From Polyangiaceae bacterium (lineage in GTDB: Bacteria; Myxococcota_A; Polyangia; Polyangiales; Polyangiaceae): 64,000 nt of DNA. The first letter of the stretch is position 1. Every line of letters begins with the position of its first letter. The stretch is taken from NCBI GenBank assembly GCA_947475525.1, contig CANJMI010000008.1:62001-126000 (forward strand), written 5' to 3'. Of this stretch, positions 36,075 through 49,351 are shown piece by piece. The notes below the pieces were generated by a model. It saw only the letters and a program-made list of their open reading frames with translations, had not been told where the DNA came from and ran no database searches. The position numbers and the translations under genes were made by a program.

Positions 36075-39000
36075 GTGGAAAGGGGCAAGACGGCACCGCC
36101 GGGTTCGAACCGGAAAGATTCGGAACGCAAGACAGCGCCCGACGACGCCGCTGCCGCGAAAAACGCGGTTCGCCCGAAGCGTGCGCGCGGGCCAAATTCC
36201 GCCCGTGCGACGACCGTAGAAGCAGAGCCTGCCCCGCCACGCAAACGAACGGGTCGAGCCGTAACGGTGCCGGAGAGCGCTTCGCCAGAGCCCTCCCAGC
36301 AAACGAAAAAGCGGGCCACCACGAAAGCGACAGCGGCGAAGACTCGAAGCGAGGCTCGCATCGCCCCGCCCGAGCCGCCCGCTGCACTCGGTGACGTTGA
36401 GGGCGACGCCGGTGACCTCGAGGCGCTCGGAGAATCGCTGGCCCCACCTCCACGGCCAACCGAGCGATCGAAGCCCCATGATTCTCGGCGAGCGAGTGAC
36501 GAGCCCGTCGCGCCTGCCGCGGGCACGCAAGTCGAGCTCCCACTTCGCGCGCCAACTCTCCGACCCGTTGCCGCCGTAGCTCCGGTGGAGCGAGCCCCCG
36601 ATCGGGAAGCGTACGATGCCCCGGCGCCCTCGCAACGTGCGACGAACGTACCTCCGCCAGGCCGGGTAGCGAAGCTCCCGCCGCCACTCGCGGCACCGAC
36701 GATTCGGCGCCGCCAAGCCTCGCGAATGCCGGTAATAGACGAGCGGCTCGATACGCAGCCCGCGAATCGATACGCGTTTCCCGATGACGGCATGCCTCGC
36801 TCGCGGCGCCCAGGCGCACCGTCGATCCGCCCCGGCTCGATCCCTCGTGGGATCACCATCCCACCACCACCGCGAGTGGCATTCGGCGCAGAGTTCGCAG
36901 ACCAGGCGGAGAGAGCGTCACGCGAACTGTCGCGAATGGGGGACTCAGCCGATGTCGTTGTCACGAGCGCATGGCCGTTCGACGTCGACGAATCCGCCGC
37001 CTCGCTGCCGAAGGCGACCGGTCGACAGACGCGCGTTCCATCCGAGGCCTCGGAGAAGTTCGCCGACGGGGTGCAAGATGTGCTCGCGCGACTGCGACCC
37101 AGCGAATCATCGGCGCTGCGCGCTGCGGCCACCGCGGGCGAGGCGGAAGCGGCGCTCAATTCGTGGGGTGAGCCTCACGCAGGCGTCAACCGCGCGACCT
37201 CGGAGCCGTCACGACGCGCCCGCGACGAGAGCCCCCTCGCGCGCGACGATGATGACGCGTTCAACCCGTTCACCCGGCGGGCGCTGGATGCCGCTCCAGC
37301 GGCGGTCTCGGAACCTCGCGCGCAATCCTCCAGCGACGACGAGCAACCGACGTCCGGGGTCGACAGCTTCCGAAGCAAGGACGACGAACCACTCTCGAGC
37401 GGCGTCGCAGCAATGTTCGCCAGCGAGTCCGCGCGAGATCCAGAATGGAACCGCGGCTCGAGCGATCGGAGCGGTGGCGAAAGCGCAGCCCCAACCACGC
37501 ACGCGTTCTCGGAACTTCCCAGCGAGGAGCGCATCTCGGAGATCCCACGATCGCGGGGGGATATGCCGAGTGGAGCTTCGAGCGAATCCCTCGACGCCGC
37601 GATCGGAGACATCCTCGGCTCCAGCTATCCGGCGTCGATCGCCGACGGAACGGCAAACTTAACCGCGCATCTCGACGCGCTCCTGGAAGATGCCGCGAGA
37701 ACGGCCGACGCCAATCCCGAAGTCGACTTCGGTAACCTCGACGACGAATTTCAGCGCGGAGGTCCGACGACCAAGCCGGCCTCGCCCGCCTCCGACTTCG
37801 GACCACCGGCAAAGACGCTGCGCGGCCGCGACGTCGACGACAACGATTTTTTCGGCGATGACGCCGAGCGCCCATTTGCAATCGACGCGGAGCCCTCGAG
37901 CTGGGGCGATACGTCGTCGCGCGCCGCGAGCTCCGCGCCACCCGGCCGAAGGCCGACGCCAAACGATGACGTGCTCGACGTCGATCCGCGAGACGTCTCG
38001 TCGCTGCCGCCCACCGCCGGTCTGCGCTGGCCCGACGAAGGAGATGACGATTTCGACCAGGAGCCGAAGCGTCAGCGTTCAAGCTACTCGCCCGAGTCGC
38101 AGGAGCCACAGCCTTCAGCGCCGCCCGACGACGAGGACGACGACCGCGCGTCGGAGTGGGGCAGCGTCGATTCGCAGGCGGGCTCGCTCGCTCGCTCGAT
38201 CCCCAATTACAATGCCGCGCTAGAGAAACTGGCAAAGCCCCCGAGCGCGGCGCCAAGCGAGAGCCGTCGGCCGCTCCACACTTCGCTCCCACCAAAGGTG
38301 TCGAGTCGGCCCGCATCGCGAATTGCTAGCCGCGGCATCTGGCTCGCAACGGCGCTGGTTGTGGCTGGCGTCGCCGTCACACTGCTGCCTTGGTACATGC
38401 TGACTCGTGCGGAAAAACACGCGCAAAACTGCTTCCACAAGCTGGTCAAGACGACGGAAGGGGACCCGGCCGAGTGCGTTCCTTCGACAAGCGAGTTGGC
38501 CCTCCCACGCAGCCTGCCGTGGTTGAAGGCCGACGCCCTCCGCATCCGCGAACAGAGCGAATTCCGCGCCGCACGGCTTGCTTACGACATCGCAACGGCG
38601 ATCGTTCCCAACGCGACACGACGCGATGAAGCCGCCCTTCGCCTCCTCGAACTCACCTACCGCGGCAGTGCGACCGAACGCGCGGCGGCGCTCGGTGTGG
38701 TCGCGGGCGCACACGCAGCCGTCACTCAATTCGCCATGTCGAATCGCGAGCCCGAGGCGGTCTCGTTCGCGTTGCGCAGCTCCCGTGCGATTGGCGATCT
38801 CGATGGGATGCGCTCGCTCGCGACGGGCAGCAGCGAGGACGACCCCTTCGGCATGAGCCTGCGCCGTGGAGCGCTCTTGTGCTTGCTCGGCGATCCCGAA
38901 GAAGGCGCCCGCGCATTCGTGGCAGCAGACCTCGCACAACAGCGGCAGGAGATGAGGCAGACGGGGCACGGACTCGCGAGACTCGGCCTGATCGCGTGCG

Positions 39001-40298
39001 GCAAGCCGAAAGGCGTCGATGGCGAAATCAACGCGCGACGTATGGAGGACCGACTTCTGCCCGCGATGGCCGCCCTCGATGCAAGCTTCGATACGCCGGA
39101 CGGCTTCGCGAAAGCGCGCTCGTTCCTCGAGGATGGAAAGCTCAAAATCGGTGGCATTCAGCGGTTGCGCATCGCGCCCTACGTCCTTCGCGAAACGAAG
39201 CAGACCGCGCTCGAGGCGCTTCGACTCATGGCGCCACTCCACGCGCCGGCCGCGCGCTCGGACCTCGCCGCCGTGCGAACGCCATGGATGATGTTCGACG
39301 TCGAAGCGCCGGTTCAGGCGGTCTACATCGACACCCGCGCAGCCGAGATCGCAGCGCCGTATCTCGAGAACTTGGCGGAAAAACTCAGCGGAAAGCCACT
39401 CGACTGCAGCGGCGAGGAGTGCCCCGATCCCGCGGCGTTGAAGTTGCCCGACGCCGTCCTCAAGGAGGCGGCACGGATGGTCTGGTTCGAAGCCGCTGCC
39501 GAGCACGCGCGCCTTGGACATCGGGAAGCCGCGATCGAAGCGGCCAACCACGCGACCGAACTCGCCGCTCGCACGCGTCGCTACCTCGTGGCCCCAATCC
39601 TCCTTGCCGTCGGCGATGCCGAAGGCGCATTGAACTTACTCGTCGACGCCGTCGCTAACCTCGACGGTTACACGCCGCTCGCGCAGACGCGCGTCCACTT
39701 GAACCACGCGCTCGCCTTGGCGCATCTCGGCCGCTACGAGCCCGCCATGGCCGCCGCCGAACGAGCGTACGTCGCGGCCGGCCGGGCAGAAGAACTGGCG
39801 CGCGAGGGTCGCGAGGGCATCGACACCGAGGTTGCTCTTCAGGACGATAAAATTGCGGCCGCGTGGCTCTGGGGTGCAATGGCGCTACTCGTCGGCAAGC
39901 CGGACAGCGTCGGCGAAGCCTTGCGCGATGCGACCACGAAAGAACTCGCAGAAGTGGCCACTTGGGTTGGACTCGCAACGCGCCCCGAAGAAGAGCGCCG
40001 CGCCGAACGTTGGGAGCTCGCGCTCGCGATGCCTAGCCAGCCAGCCCTCCCGGCCGTGATGTACGTGGTGAGCCGCGCCGTGCCGTCGATGACCGAGGTC
40101 GAAGTCTGGATCGACCGAGTATTTCAGCAGGAAAACCGCACCCAGCCCATCCGCTCGATGCTCGCGCGAGCCGAGGCCGCCCGATGGCGCAACGACGCCG
40201 AAGCGGAGCGCAACTGGCAAAGCCGCGCGGCGAAAATGCTCGGCCTGATCAAAGACTACAAGACGTCGCTGCTCGCCCACTTCCTCGAGCTCCACTGA
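36075..40298 (+). CDS. Large single-pass membrane protein with disordered N-terminus and helical-repeat C-terminus
   Basis: 1407 residues starting at GTG 36075. The first 750 residues are low-complexity, charged and Pro/Ser/Ala-rich, with a basic N-terminus (KRARGP, PPRKRTGRAV) and then long acidic stretches. One transmembrane helix lies at about 754-776 (GIWLATALVVAGVAVTLLPW). The last 630 residues are helical with TPR-like spacing (LGLIACGKPKGVDGEINA, EHARLGHREAAIEAANHATELA, LNHALALAHLGRYEPAMAAAERAYVAAG). The long N-terminus should be cytoplasmic and the solenoid periplasmic. I do not recognise the family; no kinase or peptidase motif is visible. It may be a scaffold linking cytoplasm and envelope. 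It stands alone. Confidence 0.65.
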   Translation: MERGKTAPPGSNRKDSERKTAPDDAAAAKNAVRPKRARGPNSARATTVEAEPAPPRKRTGRAVTVPESASPEPSQQTKKRATTKATAAKTRSEARIAPPEPPAALGDVEGDAGDLEALGESLAPPPRPTERSKPHDSRRASDEPVAPAAGTQVELPLRAPTLRPVAAVAPVERAPDREAYDAPAPSQRATNVPPPGRVAKLPPPLAAPTIRRRQASRMPVIDERLDTQPANRYAFPDDGMPRSRRPGAPSIRPGSIPRGITIPPPPRVAFGAEFADQAERASRELSRMGDSADVVVTSAWPFDVDESAASLPKATGRQTRVPSEASEKFADGVQDVLARLRPSESSALRAAATAGEAEAALNSWGEPHAGVNRATSEPSRRARDESPLARDDDDAFNPFTRRALDAAPAAVSEPRAQSSSDDEQPTSGVDSFRSKDDEPLSSGVAAMFASESARDPEWNRGSSDRSGGESAAPTTHAFSELPSEERISEIPRSRGDMPSGASSESLDAAIGDILGSSYPASIADGTANLTAHLDALLEDAARTADANPEVDFGNLDDEFQRGGPTTKPASPASDFGPPAKTLRGRDVDDNDFFGDDAERPFAIDAEPSSWGDTSSRAASSAPPGRRPTPNDDVLDVDPRDVSSLPPTAGLRWPDEGDDDFDQEPKRQRSSYSPESQEPQPSAPPDDEDDDRASEWGSVDSQAGSLARSIPNYNAALEKLAKPPSAAPSESRRPLHTSLPPKVSSRPASRIASRGIWLATALVVAGVAVTLLPWYMLTRAEKHAQNCFHKLVKTTEGDPAECVPSTSELALPRSLPWLKADALRIREQSEFRAARLAYDIATAIVPNATRRDEAALRLLELTYRGSATERAAALGVVAGAHAAVTQFAMSNREPEAVSFALRSSRAIGDLDGMRSLATGSSEDDPFGMSLRRGALLCLLGDPEEGARAFVAADLAQQRQEMRQTGHGLARLGLIACGKPKGVDGEINARRMEDRLLPAMAALDASFDTPDGFAKARSFLEDGKLKIGGIQRLRIAPYVLRETKQTALEALRLMAPLHAPAARSDLAAVRTPWMMFDVEAPVQAVYIDTRAAEIAAPYLENLAEKLSGKPLDCSGEECPDPAALKLPDAVLKEAARMVWFEAAAEHARLGHREAAIEAANHATELAARTRRYLVAPILLAVGDAEGALNLLVDAVANLDGYTPLAQTRVHLNHALALAHLGRYEPAMAAAERAYVAAGRAEELAREGREGIDTEVALQDDKIAAAWLWGAMALLVGKPDSVGEALRDATTKELAEVATWVGLATRPEEERRAERWELALAMPSQPALPAVMYVVSRAVPSMTEVEVWIDRVFQQENRTQPIRSMLARAEAARWRNDAEAERNWQSRAAKMLGLIKDYKTSLLAHFLELH

Positions 40299-44174: not shown

Positions 44175-45254
44175 CTACGTAAGGTCGCTATCCCCGCGCG
44201 ACACGAGCTCGGCAACGACGTCTCGAACGCGCTGCGCTTCGTCGCGATGAACGATCAACAACGCATCGTCGGTCTCCACCACCACGAGGTCACGCACGCC
44301 GCAGAGCGCGATGACGCGTTTTGCTCCGCGGGCGCGCAAATCACTGACGTGGTTGCCCGCCGAGTCAACGAAGATTGCGCCTGAAGGACCGCTGTTGTGG
44401 GCCTCGTCTTTCGAGGCAAGGTCGCTCAGGCTGAGCCAACTTCCAAGGTCGCCCCACCCAAAGTCACCCGGCACCATCGCGAGCTGTTCCATCTTCTCCA
44501 TCACCCCGACGTCGATGCTGACCGCCGGCAACGTCGGAAAGATCTCCGCGAGCACGGCCGACTCGTCGCCGGCACGCGCCGCCGCGTCGATAGCCGCGAG
44601 CCCCCGCGCAAGCTCGGGGAGATGCTCGGCAATTGCGCGCACCATGTCGCCCGCGCGGAAGATGAACATGCCGGCGTTCCAAAAGAAGGTCCCGGCCGCA
44701 AGAAACGCTTCCGCTCGAGCGCGCTCCGGCTTTTCGACAAAGCGGATGGCGCTCCAGACGATCCCTGAGCGAAGCTCGGCCTCGATGTAACCGAAGCCGG
44801 TCTCGGGGTGCGTCGGCTTGATTCCGATCGTCGTGATGATGCCCCGGCGCGCCGAGGCGACGGCCACTTCGAGCGCCGCTCGATAGCCTGGAAGATTGGC
44901 AATGTGATGGTCGCTTGGCAACGCCATGACGACCGCATCGGGATCGGTGCGGGCGATGACATGGGCCGCCCAGCCGATGCACGGCGCCGTGTTGCGAGCG
45001 GCGGGCTCGACGAGCAATTGGCCGCGCGACAACTCGGGGAGCATCGCGAGCGTCGCCTCGACGAGGTGGGCGCCCGTGGCGATCCACACGCGCTCCGGCC
45101 CGCACAGCGGCATGACCCGCTCGACGGCTTGCCTGATAAGCGCCTCGTCCCCCGCCAGCGCGAGCAGCTGCTTTGGTCGAAGGCGCCGTGAGGCTGGCCA
45201 AAACCGCGTGCCTGCTCCGCCGGCCATGATCACGGCGTGGATTGCTTCACTCAT
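44175..45254 (-). CDS. manC: Mannose-1-phosphate guanylyltransferase
   Basis: Makes GDP-mannose from mannose-1-phosphate and GTP for cell-surface polysaccharides. The 359 residues are a single nucleotidyltransferase domain without the C-terminal cupin isomerase seen in long forms. Key motifs are VIMAGGAGTRFWPASRRLRP with the following PKQLL, then LVEPAARNTAPCIG, FVEKPERA, WNAGMFIF and WGDLGSW. It is first in a minus-strand run with DUF1592, DUF1552 and DUF3105, though whether these share a transcript is unclear. It is divergent from the TerB-PPP gene. Confidence 0.92.
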   Translation of the reverse strand: MSEAIHAVIMAGGAGTRFWPASRRLRPKQLLALAGDEALIRQAVERVMPLCGPERVWIATGAHLVEATLAMLPELSRGQLLVEPAARNTAPCIGWAAHVIARTDPDAVVMALPSDHHIANLPGYRAALEVAVASARRGIITTIGIKPTHPETGFGYIEAELRSGIVWSAIRFVEKPERARAEAFLAAGTFFWNAGMFIFRAGDMVRAIAEHLPELARGLAAIDAAARAGDESAVLAEIFPTLPAVSIDVGVMEKMEQLAMVPGDFGWGDLGSWLSLSDLASKDEAHNSGPSGAIFVDSAGNHVSDLRARGAKRVIALCGVRDLVVVETDDALLIVHRDEAQRVRDVVAELVSRGDSDLT

Positions 45255-45356: not shown

Positions 45357-47039
45357 ATGTTTGAGCTCAGCCGCGACACCGCCCTCGCAGAGCAACAGGT
45401 CCGTGCCCTAACGTTTTGCCTCGTGGCGTTCGCGTACGTCGATGGCGACCTCGATCCTCTGGAACGGGACTTCATCCTCGGAGAGCTCGACGCCCTCGCC
45501 AAACAGCGCGCCGCTCTCGGACCCGCGTCGGCTGCGGAGGCCAGTGCCGCACATTGGACACGCGAGCATCGCGTGACGTTCGAGGGATACGTCGCTTTGG
45601 TCTGCGCGCATTTCACCGAGTCGGTCGGGGATGGCGAGACCTCAGCAGAGTTCGTCATCAGCCGGCTCAAGCTCGGATGTCTCGAGATGCTCGAACGGCT
45701 CCCCGACGGTCTTCAGCGCAAGGTGGTCCAGGCGGTCGAACAGTTGATGCACGCCGACGGCCACGTACACCCAAATGAAGCGGCGTTCTTCACCAAAGTC
45801 TCGGCGCTCTTGCACACCGAACTCGCATTCGTCGACACCGACGTCGACGACCACGTCCTGCCGGAGATACGGATCGCATCGCCACGAGAGCTGCCACTTT
45901 CACCCGGCGCGGACGACCCGCTACTTCGCGACGGCGAATGGAACTTCTCCGACGAGCCCAGCACCTTCGCGCAGCAGAGAGAGGCCGAAATTGCTCGCGT
46001 CACACACGCCGAAGAGCTCTTTCGGTCCCTTCGTTCACGCGGCACGGGCGTGCTCGCGCAAGCGACCGTACTCGACGATCTGCACGCCGGTCCCCGCTGG
46101 CTCGACGGCCGCGTTTACGCACAGCAGCCGGACCCAACGCGCTCCTACGAACTGCTCGTCCTAGGCGACCTCCACGGCTGTTATTCGTGCTTGAAGGCAG
46201 CGCTGCTGCAGTCCGAGTTCTTCGAGAAAGTTCGGCGTCACGAGGCCGACCCCGAAGCCCATCCGGAGACAACACTCGTGCTGCTGGGCGACTACATCGA
46301 CCGCGGCAAGTTCAGTTACACAGGCACGCTCCGAGCCGCCCTGAACGTGTTCAGCCGATACCCGCGCCAGGTCGTGATGCTGCGCGGCAACCACGAACAC
46401 TACGTCGAATTCCGTGGTCGCGTACTCGCGCCGGTACGGCCCTGCGAAGCGCTCGACTCCCTCGCGAACCACGACGGCATGCGGCTACTCAATGCCTACC
46501 GCCGCTTCTTCGACGACCTACCAACGAGCTTCTTGTTCGGCGACACGCTGTTTGTCCACGGCGGTATTCCGCGAGACGCAACGTTCGAGGCGAAGTGGCG
46601 AGGACTGCGAAGCCTCAACGACCAAGAACTCGCCTTCGAGATGATGTGGAGCGATCCGAGTGACGTCGACGTCGTGCCGCGCGAGCTGCAGAAAGAAGTC
46701 ACCCGGTTCGGCTTCGGCCGGCGTCAGTTTCAGCGCTTCATGAAGGCGCTCGGTTGCCGTGTGCTCGTTCGGGGCCATGAGCGCATCACGGAAGGAATGC
46801 GCGTGACCTACGACTCCCCCGACGCGAAGCTCGTGACGCTGTTCTCCGCTGGTGGCTCAGAGAACGGCGACCTGCCGCCGACGAGCAATTACCGGGCGGT
46901 AACGCCGATGGCGCTGCAACTCTTCCACCGAGCGGGCGTGACGGAACTCGCCCCCTTCACCATCGACTACCGCACGTACAACTCAGCTGCTACGAACGCC
47001 TTGTTCGCGAGTGAACTCGCGCATGTAGCGCAAGCTTGA
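45357..47039 (+). CDS. TerB-like domain fused to a PPP-family metallophosphatase
   Basis: 560 residues. I chose ATG 45357 over 45345 because a TAGGAT (AGGA) lies 10-11 bases before it. Residues about 15-165 resemble the tellurite-resistance TerB fold with two acidic motifs, VDGDLDPLERDFI and ADGHVHPNEAAFF, which often bind metal. Residues about 265-520 form a PPP (PP1/PP2A/Ser-Thr) phosphatase: GDLHGC (about 270), GDYIDRG (about 311), RGNHEHY, FVHGGIP and VRGHERI, with all metal ligands. It should be a cytoplasmic protein phosphatase or diadenosine hydrolase-like enzyme. The domain pairing is unusual. It is 46 bases upstream of gltA. Confidence 0.8.
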   Translation: MFELSRDTALAEQQVRALTFCLVAFAYVDGDLDPLERDFILGELDALAKQRAALGPASAAEASAAHWTREHRVTFEGYVALVCAHFTESVGDGETSAEFVISRLKLGCLEMLERLPDGLQRKVVQAVEQLMHADGHVHPNEAAFFTKVSALLHTELAFVDTDVDDHVLPEIRIASPRELPLSPGADDPLLRDGEWNFSDEPSTFAQQREAEIARVTHAEELFRSLRSRGTGVLAQATVLDDLHAGPRWLDGRVYAQQPDPTRSYELLVLGDLHGCYSCLKAALLQSEFFEKVRRHEADPEAHPETTLVLLGDYIDRGKFSYTGTLRAALNVFSRYPRQVVMLRGNHEHYVEFRGRVLAPVRPCEALDSLANHDGMRLLNAYRRFFDDLPTSFLFGDTLFVHGGIPRDATFEAKWRGLRSLNDQELAFEMMWSDPSDVDVVPRELQKEVTRFGFGRRQFQRFMKALGCRVLVRGHERITEGMRVTYDSPDAKLVTLFSAGGSENGDLPPTSNYRAVTPMALQLFHRAGVTELAPFTIDYRTYNSAATNALFASELAHVAQA

Positions 47040-47073
47040 TTCGTGGTAACAGACGATGGGTGCGGGGAACGAA

Positions 47074-47085: not shown

Positions 47086-48384
47086 GTGAACTCTGCGAAG
47101 CTTACGCTGAACATTGCCGGTGTTGAAAAGACGATCGACTTTCCAGTGATCGTCGGCAGCGAGAATGAAGTCGCCATCGACATCCGCGATCTCCGCGCGA
47201 AAACCGGGGTAATAGCCCTCGATCCGTCGTTCGGAAACACCGGCTCGTGCACCAGCGCGATCACCTACATCGACGGCGACGCGGGCATCCTTCGGTACCG
47301 CGGGATCCCGATCGAGCAACTCGGCGAACATTCGAGCTTCGTCGAGACGAGCTACCTCCTGATCAACGGGCGGTTGCCCAACAAATTTGAGCTAGGCGAA
47401 TACTCCCGCAAGCTCACCATGCACTCGCTCATCCACGAGGACATGAAGCACTTCTTCGACGGCTACCCGTCGACCGCGCATCCGATGGCGATCTTGAGCG
47501 CGATGGTCTGTTCGCTCTCGAGCTTCTACCCAGAGGCCCTCGACGCGACGAATACCGAGCTCTTCGACATCACGGCCACTCGTCTCTTGTCCAAGGTCCG
47601 CACGATCGCGGCGTTCTCGTACAAGAAGTCGATCGGCCAACCGGTGATGTACCCGCGCAACGACCTCAGCTACTGCGCAAACCTCCTTCAGATGATGTTC
47701 GCTACGCCGTGCGAGCCGCACGAGCCCGATGAAGAGGTCGTCAAGATCGTAAATTTGCTGCTGATCCTTCACGCGGATCACGAGCAAAACTGTTCGACGA
47801 GCACCGTCCGCGTGGTCGGCAGCGGCCAAGCCAACTTGTTCGCGTCGGTTGCGGCGGGCATCTGCGCGCTCTGGGGCCCGCGTCACGGCGGCGCAAACCA
47901 GGAAGTCATCGGGATGCTGGCCAAAATTCAGGCCAACGGCGGCGACGTCAACAAGTTCCTCTCCCTCGTCAAGGACAAGTCGAGCACCGTCAAGCTCATG
48001 GGCTTCGGGCACCGCGTGTACAAAAACTTCGATCCACGCGCGCTCCTCATCAAGAAGGCCGCCGACAGCGCGCTGAGGAAGCTCGGCAAACCAGACCCCT
48101 TGCTCGACGTAGCCAAGCGCCTTGAAGAGGCCGCCCTGAAGGACAGCTACTTCATCGATCGCAAACTCTACCCGAACGTCGACTTCTACAGCGGCATCAT
48201 CTACCGCGCGCTCGGCTTCCCGACCAACATGTTCACCGTGCTTTTCGCGCTCGGGCGTCTTCCGGGCTGGATCGCGCAGTGGAAGGAAATGAACGAGGAT
48301 CCGACTACCCGCATCGCGCGACCGCGCCAGATCTACACGGGCAACGTGGCGCAAGATTACGTCCCGATCGACTCGCGCGTGTAG
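47086..48384 (+). CDS. gltA: Citrate synthase
   Basis: Condenses oxaloacetate and acetyl-CoA into citrate, entry to the TCA cycle. 432 residues from GTG 47086, chosen by the strong Shine-Dalgarno sequence five bases upstream. The catalytic residues are in place: His267 in WGPRHGGAN, His309 in GFGHRVYKN and Asp366 in NVDFYSG, with the same spacing as the E. coli enzyme. Other family segments are HADHEQNCSTSTVR and YIDGDAGILRYRGIPI. It is of the hexameric, long bacterial type (N-terminal beta domain present). It follows the TerB-PPP phosphatase by 46 bases and may be co-transcribed. Confidence 0.96.
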   Translation: MNSAKLTLNIAGVEKTIDFPVIVGSENEVAIDIRDLRAKTGVIALDPSFGNTGSCTSAITYIDGDAGILRYRGIPIEQLGEHSSFVETSYLLINGRLPNKFELGEYSRKLTMHSLIHEDMKHFFDGYPSTAHPMAILSAMVCSLSSFYPEALDATNTELFDITATRLLSKVRTIAAFSYKKSIGQPVMYPRNDLSYCANLLQMMFATPCEPHEPDEEVVKIVNLLLILHADHEQNCSTSTVRVVGSGQANLFASVAAGICALWGPRHGGANQEVIGMLAKIQANGGDVNKFLSLVKDKSSTVKLMGFGHRVYKNFDPRALLIKKAADSALRKLGKPDPLLDVAKRLEEAALKDSYFIDRKLYPNVDFYSGIIYRALGFPTNMFTVLFALGRLPGWIAQWKEMNEDPTTRIARPRQIYTGNVAQDYVPIDSRV

Positions 48385-48499
48385 CGCGTGACGGCGGTAA
48401 CGCGGGGTCGTCCCGGCGGTCCGAGCGTTGAGCGCGCCACGGGTCGTCGGGCCCGTGCTTGCGGTTGACCGCGGCGGCGTCTGTCGCGATGCTCGACGG

Positions 48500-48505
48500 A
48501 AGGAG
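48500..48505 (+). promoter_or_regulatory. Shine-Dalgarno sequence of the secreted Cys-repeat gene
   Basis: AAGGAG, six bases before ATG 48512, sets the start and rules out the longer frame from 48428. Confidence 0.7.
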
Positions 48506-48511
48506 TCCACC

Positions 48512-49351
48512 ATGCGTACTTTTTTCGTCGCCACCCCATTCGCCCTCGCTTGGGCACTTGCCCTCACCACCGCCGCACCGAGCCGCGCCACAGCTGCCGA
48601 TCTCAGCGCGTGCGGCCCATTCGATTTCAGCGCCGGCATCAACTGCGAACTGAAGTTCTCAGGCGGCTGCGAGACCGCATGCACCCCGCTCAACGTCGCG
48701 GCAACGTGCGACGCGACGTGCGAGGGAAGCTGTACCGCGAAGCTCGACGTCGGCTGCTCGGTCGACTGCAACGTCGGCTGCGAAGGCGAATGCAAAGTCG
48801 ACCCCGGAAAATTCGATTGCACGGCCTCATGCAACGCCGATTGCAGCGGCTCCTGCGACACGAAATGCGCGTCGAGCGGCAACAAGACGCAGTGCAAGAG
48901 CACGTGCAGTTCCACCTGCAGCGGCCAGTGCAGCGCGAAGTGCGAGGTGGTCCCACCCAGCGCAACCTGCAAGGCGAAATGCACGGCGAGCTGTGACGGA
49001 AGCTGCACCGCTGAAGCGAACATCGACTGCCGGGTCGACTGCGAAGGCGGCTGCCAAGTCGACGTCTCGGGCGGATGCAAGACGCAGTGCGCCAAGCCGG
49101 AAGGCGCGCTCTTCTGCAACGGCCAATACGTCGATTCCGACGATCTCGGAGCGTGCATCGCAGCCCTCGCAACAATCGAGGTCACGGTGTCGGGCTCTGC
49201 CGCATGCGACAACGGCGTCTGCACCGCCGAGGGCGAGGTCAGCTGCGCCGCCTCACCGCTTGCGACGACGGGCAAAGGCTCGATGCTCGCGCTTGGCAGC
49301 GTGGTCGCAGGCCTCGCGGTCGCCGTGGGTCGTCGTCGTCGTCGCCTCTAA
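48512..49351 (+). CDS. Secreted cysteine-repeat protein with C-terminal membrane/Arg anchor
   Basis: 279 residues. A signal peptide (FALAWALALTTAAPSRATA) is followed by about 140 residues of a tight repeat in which Cys occurs every three to six positions in blocks like CEGSCTAKLDVGCSVDC and CSGSCDTKCASSG. This predicts a disulfide-laced fibre or beta-helix. The C-terminus has a Thr/Gly turn, a hydrophobic span (LALGSVVAGLAVAV) and the tail GRRRRRL, resembling a C-terminal sorting signal of the MYXO-CTERM kind, but without its usual Cys. So it is probably displayed on the cell surface. It differs from the NCGxC lipoprotein at 13.7 kb. Function unknown. Confidence 0.7.
   Translation: MRTFFVATPFALAWALALTTAAPSRATAADLSACGPFDFSAGINCELKFSGGCETACTPLNVAATCDATCEGSCTAKLDVGCSVDCNVGCEGECKVDPGKFDCTASCNADCSGSCDTKCASSGNKTQCKSTCSSTCSGQCSAKCEVVPPSATCKAKCTASCDGSCTAEANIDCRVDCEGGCQVDVSGGCKTQCAKPEGALFCNGQYVDSDDLGACIAALATIEVTVSGSAACDNGVCTAEGEVSCAASPLATTGKGSMLALGSVVAGLAVAVGRRRRRL

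What the first reader, a model, noticed from the sequence alone, without database searches (positions are those of the whole stretch)
45357..47039. TerB-like domain fused to a PPP phosphatase
Two acidic TerB motifs (VDGDLDPLERDFI and ADGHVHPNEAAFF) precede a complete PPP phosphatase (GDLHG, GDYIDRG, RGNHE). TerB folds bind metals and membranes, so this might be a metal-responsive protein phosphatase counteracting the many Ser/Thr kinases of these bacteria. It lies upstream of gltA.
Basis: partly seen in the sequence, partly recalled or inferred. Interest (0 to 1): 0.5.

Follow-up and report, generated by a model that had tools for sequence, protein, structure and literature searches.

The report
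TerB domain fused to protein phosphatase
A myxobacterial protein joins a small helical TerB domain to a protein phosphatase of the kind best known from eukaryotes and archaea; the same two-part protein is found in about half of the related species sampled, so it is a real and conserved type of bacterial signalling enzyme, though nobody has shown what its TerB part senses.

Summary
Window 45357-47039 (+) is one 560-residue gene. Its N-terminus is a TerB domain: Pfam TerB is above its cut-off, and the best fold match is the TerB-like structure 2h5n. The rest is a complete PPP phosphatase. Both parts occur in 21 of 21 family members scanned. Strong relatives occur in 20 of 38 genomes of the window's class but 1 of 149 others of the phylum; a larger, overlapping draw of the class gives 106 of 192. 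The catalytic domain is not the usual bacterial type: it lacks the (I/L/V)D(S/T)G signature at its proper place and is closest to eukaryotic PP5, PP1 and PP2A in fold. All metal ligands and the catalytic histidine are invariant. Adjacency to gltA holds within the genus (2 of 2 genomes) but in 0 of 21 other neighbourhoods. Metal response is untested. Best reading: a soluble Ser/Thr protein phosphatase with TerB as regulatory module, laid out like PP5 (TPR-PPP), opposing some of the genome's roughly 100 kinases. New variant of a known kind.

The parts
45357..47039 (+). TerB-PPP phosphatase gene, 560 aa plus stop
   Evidence: start supported by family alignment
45357..45815 (+). TerB domain, residues 1-153: helices 8-26, 34-53, 57-87, 96-113, 117-131, 139-152
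   Evidence: Pfam TerB 27.1 bits; model pLDDT 92.6, pTM 0.86; VIA-align to 2h5n Z 8.5
45441..45464 (+). first acidic corner DGDLDPLE (residues 29-36)
   Evidence: D29 in 61 of 61 and E36 in 59 of 61 full-length sequences
45756..45779 (+). second acidic corner DGHVHPNE (residues 134-141)
   Evidence: D134, G135 and E141 in 61 of 61; H138 in 52 of 53 subfamily-A sequences
45915..47018 (+). phosphatase domain in the structural sense, residues 187-554, including the N-terminal helices shared with eukaryotic PPPs
   Evidence: VIA-align to PP5 catalytic domain Z 29.6, 284 aligned, 2.9 A, model range 186-554
46152..46781 (+). Pfam Metallophos core, residues 266-475
   Evidence: 68.4 bits
46164..46178 (+). 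GDLHG, metal ligands D271 and H273
   Evidence: all five residues invariant in 61 of 61; ligand roles recalled from PP1
46287..46307 (+). GDYIDRG, D312, D315 and R316
   Evidence: all seven residues invariant in 61 of 61
46383..46397 (+). RGNHE, metal ligand N345 and catalytic H346
   Evidence: all five residues invariant in 61 of 61
46554..46565 (+). VHGG, metal ligand H401
   Evidence: H401 and G403 invariant in 61 of 61
46770..46781 (+). RGHE, metal ligand H474
   Evidence: R472, G473 and H474 invariant in 61 of 61
47086..48384 (+). gltA, citrate synthase; probably co-transcribed in this genus only (an in-frame ATG at 47056 is also possible)
   Evidence: Pfam Citrate_synt 437.8 bits; adjacency kept in same-genus genome G329
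44175..45254 (-). divergent neighbour, nucleotidyltransferase of the mannose-1-phosphate guanylyltransferase type
   Evidence: Pfam NTP_transferase 138.9 bits and ManC_GMP_beta-helix 52.5 bits

Best explanation
A soluble, metal-dependent PPP Ser/Thr protein phosphatase of the eukaryotic/archaeal-like type, carrying an N-terminal TerB domain as its built-in regulatory module. Shown here: both domains are real, fused in the full-length members examined, under purifying selection, and the active site is complete. Inferred: it dephosphorylates Ser/Thr-phosphorylated proteins made by the genome's many eukaryote-like kinases. Also inferred: the TerB domain binds a divalent metal or another small ligand at its two DG-x2-(D/H)-x2-E corners and sets the activity or target choice of the phosphatase, in the way that TPR repeats control PP5 or EF-hands control PPEF (these eukaryotic mechanisms are recalled).
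For: Both Pfam domains match in 21 of 21 family members scanned. The TerB part's best fold match is 2h5n, and the family profile finds the same chain as its best PDB sequence hit (whole-sequence E 0.0063, from two stretches each weak on its own). The catalytic fold is closest to PP5, PPZ1, PP1 and PP2A; the family profile matches eukaryotic PPP sequences down to E 1.4e-23. All metal ligands and the catalytic His are invariant in 61 of 61. The bacterial (I/L/V)D(S/T)G signature, which according to passages of PMC535813 occurs in all bacterial PPPs examined there but not in archaeal or conventional eukaryotic ones, is replaced by FSAGG (52), FSSGG (8) or FTAGG (1) in 61 of 61. The family groups with archaeal and eukaryotic PPPs and six other bacterial ones, split support 0.83. 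The genome has 107 Pkinase matches, 103 over cut-off. The full-length model has pTM 0.88, which suggests a defined arrangement of the two domains.
Against: No activity, substrate or ligand has been tested. Ser/Thr specificity is inferred from catalytic type only; the SAPNY motif of eukaryotic PPPs is not kept, and the residue matching PP1 R221 (recalled numbering) is not Arg, an invariant Arg (R450) lying three residues further on. Pfam gives TerB a modest score; only 6 of 8 subfamily-B members match at E 0.1, and the one displayed (L085, 20.6 bits) is below the cut-off. Profile comparison with two stand-alone TerB proteins of the same genome gave short, weak matches (probability under 4, E 0.011-0.013). 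Z 8.5 lies in the range where the tool warns that a helical bundle may show only a common arrangement, and plain Foldseek had no match at E 0.001. No EF-hand family was listed at E 10, though HMMER's filters drop most weak matches. No family-wide neighbours name a pathway.
Confidence: 0.6

Rival explanations
1. The TerB part is not a sensor but a docking or scaffold domain that brings the phosphatase to a membrane, a partner protein or a stress complex; the acidic corners are structural helix caps.
For: The TerB positions kept in 61 of 61 are turn residues D29, D134, G135 and E141, which could cap helices. The middle position of the corners varies: corner 1 is D in 52 of 53 of A and H in 6 of 8 of B; corner 2 is H in 52 of 53 of A and S or T in 8 of 8 of B. 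TerB evolves faster than PPP (dN 0.37 against 0.19), as a partner-binding surface may.
Against: E88 and E110, outside the corners, are invariant in 53 of 53 subfamily-A sequences, more than turn geometry needs; E110 is not kept in subfamily B (0 of 8). In the window's own genome terC and terD matches lie on other contigs.
Confidence: 0.3
2. The enzyme is a PPP-fold hydrolase of a non-protein substrate (nucleotide, diadenosine polyphosphate or RNA end), not a protein phosphatase.
For: The calcineurin-like superfamily is functionally broad. The best NCBIfam hits are polynucleotide kinase-phosphatase (27.2 bits, cut-off 750) and symmetrical Ap4A hydrolase (21 bits, cut-off 176); two protein-phosphatase models score 18.1 and 16, also far below cut-off.
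Against: The solved relatives shown by sequence (60 of 93 and 60 of 94 rows) and by fold (50 rows each) are protein phosphatases or constructs that contain one, apart from one chain named only FAP15. The catalytic domain groups with archaeal and eukaryotic PPPs.
Confidence: 0.12
3. The gene is functionally part of a gltA unit and regulates citrate synthase or the TCA cycle.
For: It lies directly upstream of gltA on the same strand, and this is kept in the same-genus genome G329.
Against: gltA is absent from 21 of 21 neighbourhoods of other family members (20 genomes; several cut by contig ends), so the family's function cannot depend on it.
Confidence: 0.06

Closest known systems
PP5 (TPR-PPP Ser/Thr phosphatase of eukaryotes)
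   Same: Same layout of N-terminal helical regulatory domain plus C-terminal PPP domain; best fold match, Z 29.6 over 284 residues; all metal ligands kept.
   Different: The regulatory domain is TerB, not TPR; about 19% identity; no SAPNY motif; bacterial host.
PPEF/RdgC and calcineurin (PPP regulated through EF-hand calcium binding)
   Same: A PPP domain joined to, or working with, a helix-loop-helix metal-binding module (recalled); RdgC is among the fold matches (8jfy_C, Z 28.3).
   Different: The TerB corner has only a DG-x2-(D/H)-x2-E half-loop (EF-hand comparison recalled); no EF-hand family listed at E 10; the module is N-terminal.
TerB (PF05099; structure 2h5n)
   Same: Two DG corners, all-helical fold, Pfam score over cut-off.
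   Different: A long helix (residues 57-87) stands between the two corners; fused to a phosphatase; no terC or terD on the same contig.
Bacterial PPPs (PrpA/ApaH/Shelph/Rhilph type, COG0639), including myxobacterial Pph2
   Same: GDxHG, GDxxDRG and GNHE motifs.
   Different: Lacks (I/L/V)D(S/T)G at the post-beta-12 position; keeps the WSDP region and the N-terminal helices of eukaryotic PPPs; separate branch in the tree.

Membership tests
[quoted passage not shown]
   Invariant in 61 of 61 full-length members; definition from passages of PMC535813
PPP phosphatase family | calcineurin-like metallophosphoesterase fold with a complete set of metal ligands | tested here: met
   Pfam Metallophos 68.4 bits; PP5 match Z 29.6; D271, H273, D312, N345, H401 and H474 invariant in 61 of 61
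PPP phosphatase family | hydrolysis of Ser/Thr phosphate from proteins | not testable with these tools
   needs enzyme assay
Bacterial-type PPP (PrpA/Shelph/Rhilph) | (I/L/V)D(S/T)G motif just after beta-12 | tested here: not met
   FSAGG, FSSGG or FTAGG at that position in 61 of 61; the pattern occurs elsewhere in 4 of 63, once in TerB and three times just after RGHE. As a check on the motif, searched anywhere in the frame: 12 of 19 PPPs on the other side of the tree have it and 1 of 26 non-family prokaryotic ones on the family's side (my tally against the tree), so it is not a perfect marker
[quoted passage not shown]
   At most the S-A part is kept (FSAGG)
TerB (PF05099) | score over the curated Pfam cut-off | tested here: met
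   27.1 against 24.4 bits for the window protein. 21 of 21 of subfamily A match at E 0.1, cut-offs not shown for the rest; in subfamily B 6 of 8 match at E 0.1 and the one displayed is below cut-off
TerB (PF05099) | TerB-like all-helical fold | tested here: met
   2h5n_B Z 8.5, 3.4 A, 108 aligned, next entry 5.8; plain Foldseek: rank 5, E 0.55, probability 0.97. Moderate: the tool warns that helical bundles under about Z 13 may share only a common arrangement. That 2h5n is classed TerB-like is recalled
TerB (PF05099) | metal or ligand binding by the acidic corners | not testable with these tools
   needs binding assay; a passage of PMC7824862 calls TerB a ligand-binding domain that might sense a signal
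Ter stress system | gene cluster with terC or terD | tested here: not met
   Own genome: terD matches on contigs C54 and C33, terC on C16, the gene on C8. Other genomes: none recognised by eye among the cluster hubs shown, not searched by profile

The most novel reading that the evidence does not exclude
A bacterial counterpart of the calcium-regulated phosphatases of eukaryotes: one class of Myxococcota carries a eukaryotic/archaeal-like PPP whose TerB domain works as a metal switch (a pair of half-EF-hand-like corners, with D then H in subfamily A and the His moved to the first corner in most of subfamily B), giving these kinase-rich bacteria a metal-gated off-signal for Ser/Thr phosphorylation.
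Probability: 0.22. Interest if true: 0.7.

Novelty: new variant of a known kind. Interest (0 to 1): 0.45.

Why it matters
Myxobacteria have many Ser/Thr kinases and fewer known phosphatases (PMC2887360, passages, gives 41 phosphatases for 315 kinases in Sorangium cellulosum). A conserved phosphatase outside the usual bacterial PPP type, with its own regulatory domain, is a candidate counter-enzyme. It is also a bacterial case of the 'PPP plus regulatory helical domain' design known from eukaryotes, which bears on how such phosphatases were wired in evolution, and it offers a direct test of what TerB domains sense because the output is an easily measured enzyme activity.

Tried and rejected
Rejected: two separate TerB domains (the two acidic motifs are the two corners of one domain). 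Rejected: family-wide gltA operon (0 of 21). Rejected: kinase genes as conserved neighbours; a kinase-like ORF cluster touches 15 of 63 neighbourhoods, at varying distances, near what 107 kinases in 5.15 Mb would give by chance (my estimate). Some neighbours do recur inside subgroups (clusters in 8, 7 and 6 of 63), none across the family. Rejected: anti-phage role (no PADLOC model at E 0.01). Rejected: plain bacterial PPP or ApaH (one search scores far under cut-off).

Led nowhere: the single-sequence scan of genome contigs found no relative. One search read minus-strand loci in the wrong orientation and was replaced. Profile comparison with two stand-alone TerB proteins was weak. Plain Foldseek with the TerB model gave no match at E 0.001.

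Literature: nine searches. TerB with calcineurin-like phosphoesterase (three papers), TerB/TerD with metal sensing or domain architectures (20 of 193 listed), PPP and myxobacteria (20 of 2,059 listed), bacterial-like PPPs (12 of 33 listed), TerB with metallophosphoesterase (none), TerB domain (two), eukaryotic-type PPP and myxobacteria (one), TerB with calcium and metal-binding (one), PPP with myxobacterial genus names (12 of 122 listed). None of the listings or passages seen describes this fusion. The main TerB domain survey, Anantharaman et al. 2012, is not held, so a mention there cannot be excluded. PMC2887360 (no occurrence of 'TerB' in its main text) and PMC535813 were seen as passages only, PMC4012209 and PMC7824862 as one and two passages; other papers only as search listings.

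Rows dropped: 2 partial sequences (L083, L087) of 63 before the conservation count; 4 of 49 non-family PPP loci (L116, L118, L027, L029) before the tree. The two eukaryotic tips of that tree are fragments, one lacking its GDxHG start. Near-identical loci were not removed before the counts: four pairs among the 61 are over 90% identical, one of them 100%, so the 61 are not all independent. The draws overlap.

Full report
Observation. Window 45357-47039 (+) encodes 560 residues without interruption. Pfam finds TerB (27.1 bits, cut-off 24.4, residues 18-153) and Metallophos (68.4 bits, cut-off 21.5, residues 266-475). Upstream in-frame starts exist, but family members begin at or near the ATG at 45357. 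The gene is divergent from a mannose-1-phosphate guanylyltransferase-type gene and lies directly upstream of citrate synthase on the same strand. It is the only full-length copy in its genome; the second match covers 51 residues.

Distribution. In 187 genomes of the phylum, strong relatives (E below 1e-100) are in 20 of 38 genomes of the window's class (own genome included) and in 1 of 149 others (my count from the table). A larger, overlapping draw of the class, searched with the family alignment, gives 106 of 192 (my count: 138 with any match minus 32 with only weak matches; a few of the 106 are split over contigs or segments). Of these, 41 (L053-L093) have E of 2e-102 or better and are labelled Myxococcales, Myxococcaceae, Polyangiaceae, Kofleriaceae, Sandaracinus, Nannocystis, Enhygromyxa, Minicystis, Myxococcota, Deltaproteobacteria or, once, Proteobacteria. 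The other 39 (L094-L132, E 6e-27 and weaker) match only from residue 208 on, that is the phosphatase part. The class is therefore most likely Polyangia (inference; the tool does not name it).

TerB part. The isolated residues 1-165 model at pLDDT 92.6, pTM 0.86, with six helices. Among the 998 chains aligned of those Foldseek ranks highest, VIA-align puts 2h5n, a TerB-like structure (that classification is recalled), first: Z 8.5, 3.4 A, 108 residues; the next entry has 5.8. Plain Foldseek ranks it fifth, E 0.55, probability 0.97. The family profile finds the same chain as its best PDB sequence match (E 0.0063). These are moderate values for a helical domain, and the tool warns about helical bundles under about Z 13, but they agree with Pfam. 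The two acidic stretches are the two helix-loop-helix corners. D29, D134, G135 and E141 are invariant in 61 of 61 full-length members (53 subfamily A, 8 subfamily B); E36, E88 and E110 in 53 of 53 of A. The middle position of the corners differs by subfamily: A has D (52 of 53) then H (52 of 53); B has H (6 of 8) or D (2 of 8), then S or T (8 of 8). Results that weaken the TerB label: only 6 of 8 B members match Pfam TerB at E 0.1, and profile comparison with two stand-alone TerB proteins of the genome was weak. The two subfamilies are homologous along their length (hhalign probability 100, 533 columns).

Phosphatase part. All metal ligands and the catalytic His are invariant in 61 of 61; assignment of roles follows PP1 (recalled numbering, alignment). 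The nearest solved sequences are eukaryotic: BSU1, calcineurin, PP1, PP2A. The nearest fold is the PP5 catalytic domain (Z 29.6, 284 residues), and the match starts at residue 186-187, so the linker helices belong to the phosphatase as in PP5 and PP1. Passages of PMC535813 state that (I/L/V)D(S/T)G marks all bacterial PPPs examined there and is absent from archaeal and conventional eukaryotic ones. This family has FSAGG (52), FSSGG (8) or FTAGG (1) there, without SAPNY. In a 63-sequence tree the family is a clade (support 0.99) that falls with archaeal and eukaryotic PPPs (support 0.83; placement inside unresolved, 0.17 for grouping with L023 and L095). Six other bacterial PPPs (L023, L094, L095, L096, L130, L131) fall on the same side, so a eukaryote/archaea-like PPP in a bacterium is not unique to this family. 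What is particular is the TerB fusion and its class-wide conservation.

Function. Selection keeps both parts (dN/dS 0.32 TerB, 0.41 linker, 0.21 PPP against the same-genus orthologue). The full-length model has pTM 0.88, which suggests a fixed arrangement, but coordinates and domain error were not available. The genome has 107 kinase matches, 103 over cut-off, 14 metallophosphoesterase matches and 6 TerB places, the window gene counted in the last two. terC and terD lie on other contigs. No neighbour recurs across the family, though some recur in subgroups, and gltA follows only in the genus (0 of 21 neighbourhoods from 20 other genomes). The most likely mechanism is a Ser/Thr phosphatase whose TerB domain senses a metal or small ligand. 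Fusion, conservation and the intact active site are shown; activity, specificity and regulation are inferred.

Judgement. The finding is a new architecture within known families, with no description found in the nine searches named under Tried and rejected; the key survey of TerB fusions could not be read.

Noticed in passing
L137 469-2010 (G000:C14): A stand-alone TerB gene ends 18 nt upstream of a 300-aa Ser/Thr kinase gene on the same strand, so TerB and a kinase are probably co-transcribed elsewhere in this genome. A class search with the TerB protein found matches in 15 of 78 genomes, own included, mostly weak; kinase adjacency there was not checked.
   Followed up: partly
48428-49351 (+): 307-aa cysteine-rich repeat protein with a C-terminal hydrophobic stretch and Arg-rich tail like a sorting signal (reading by eye); no Pfam match at E 0.001.
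   Followed up: no
36075-40298 (+): 1407-aa protein with a long low-complexity N-terminal half (by eye); no Pfam match at E 0.001.
   Followed up: no
L034, L039, L067, L072, L074, L078, L080, L081: In eight neighbourhoods the gene upstream of the TerB-PPP gene, on the other strand, clusters as one family; its hub (L072) looks like an outer-membrane protein with thrombospondin type 3-like acidic repeats (by eye, name recalled).
   Followed up: no
G085, G226, G237, G302 and others: Several genomes of one family of the class (f8) carry two or three TerB-PPP copies, one of subfamily A and others whose match starts later, as in subfamily B.
   Followed up: partly
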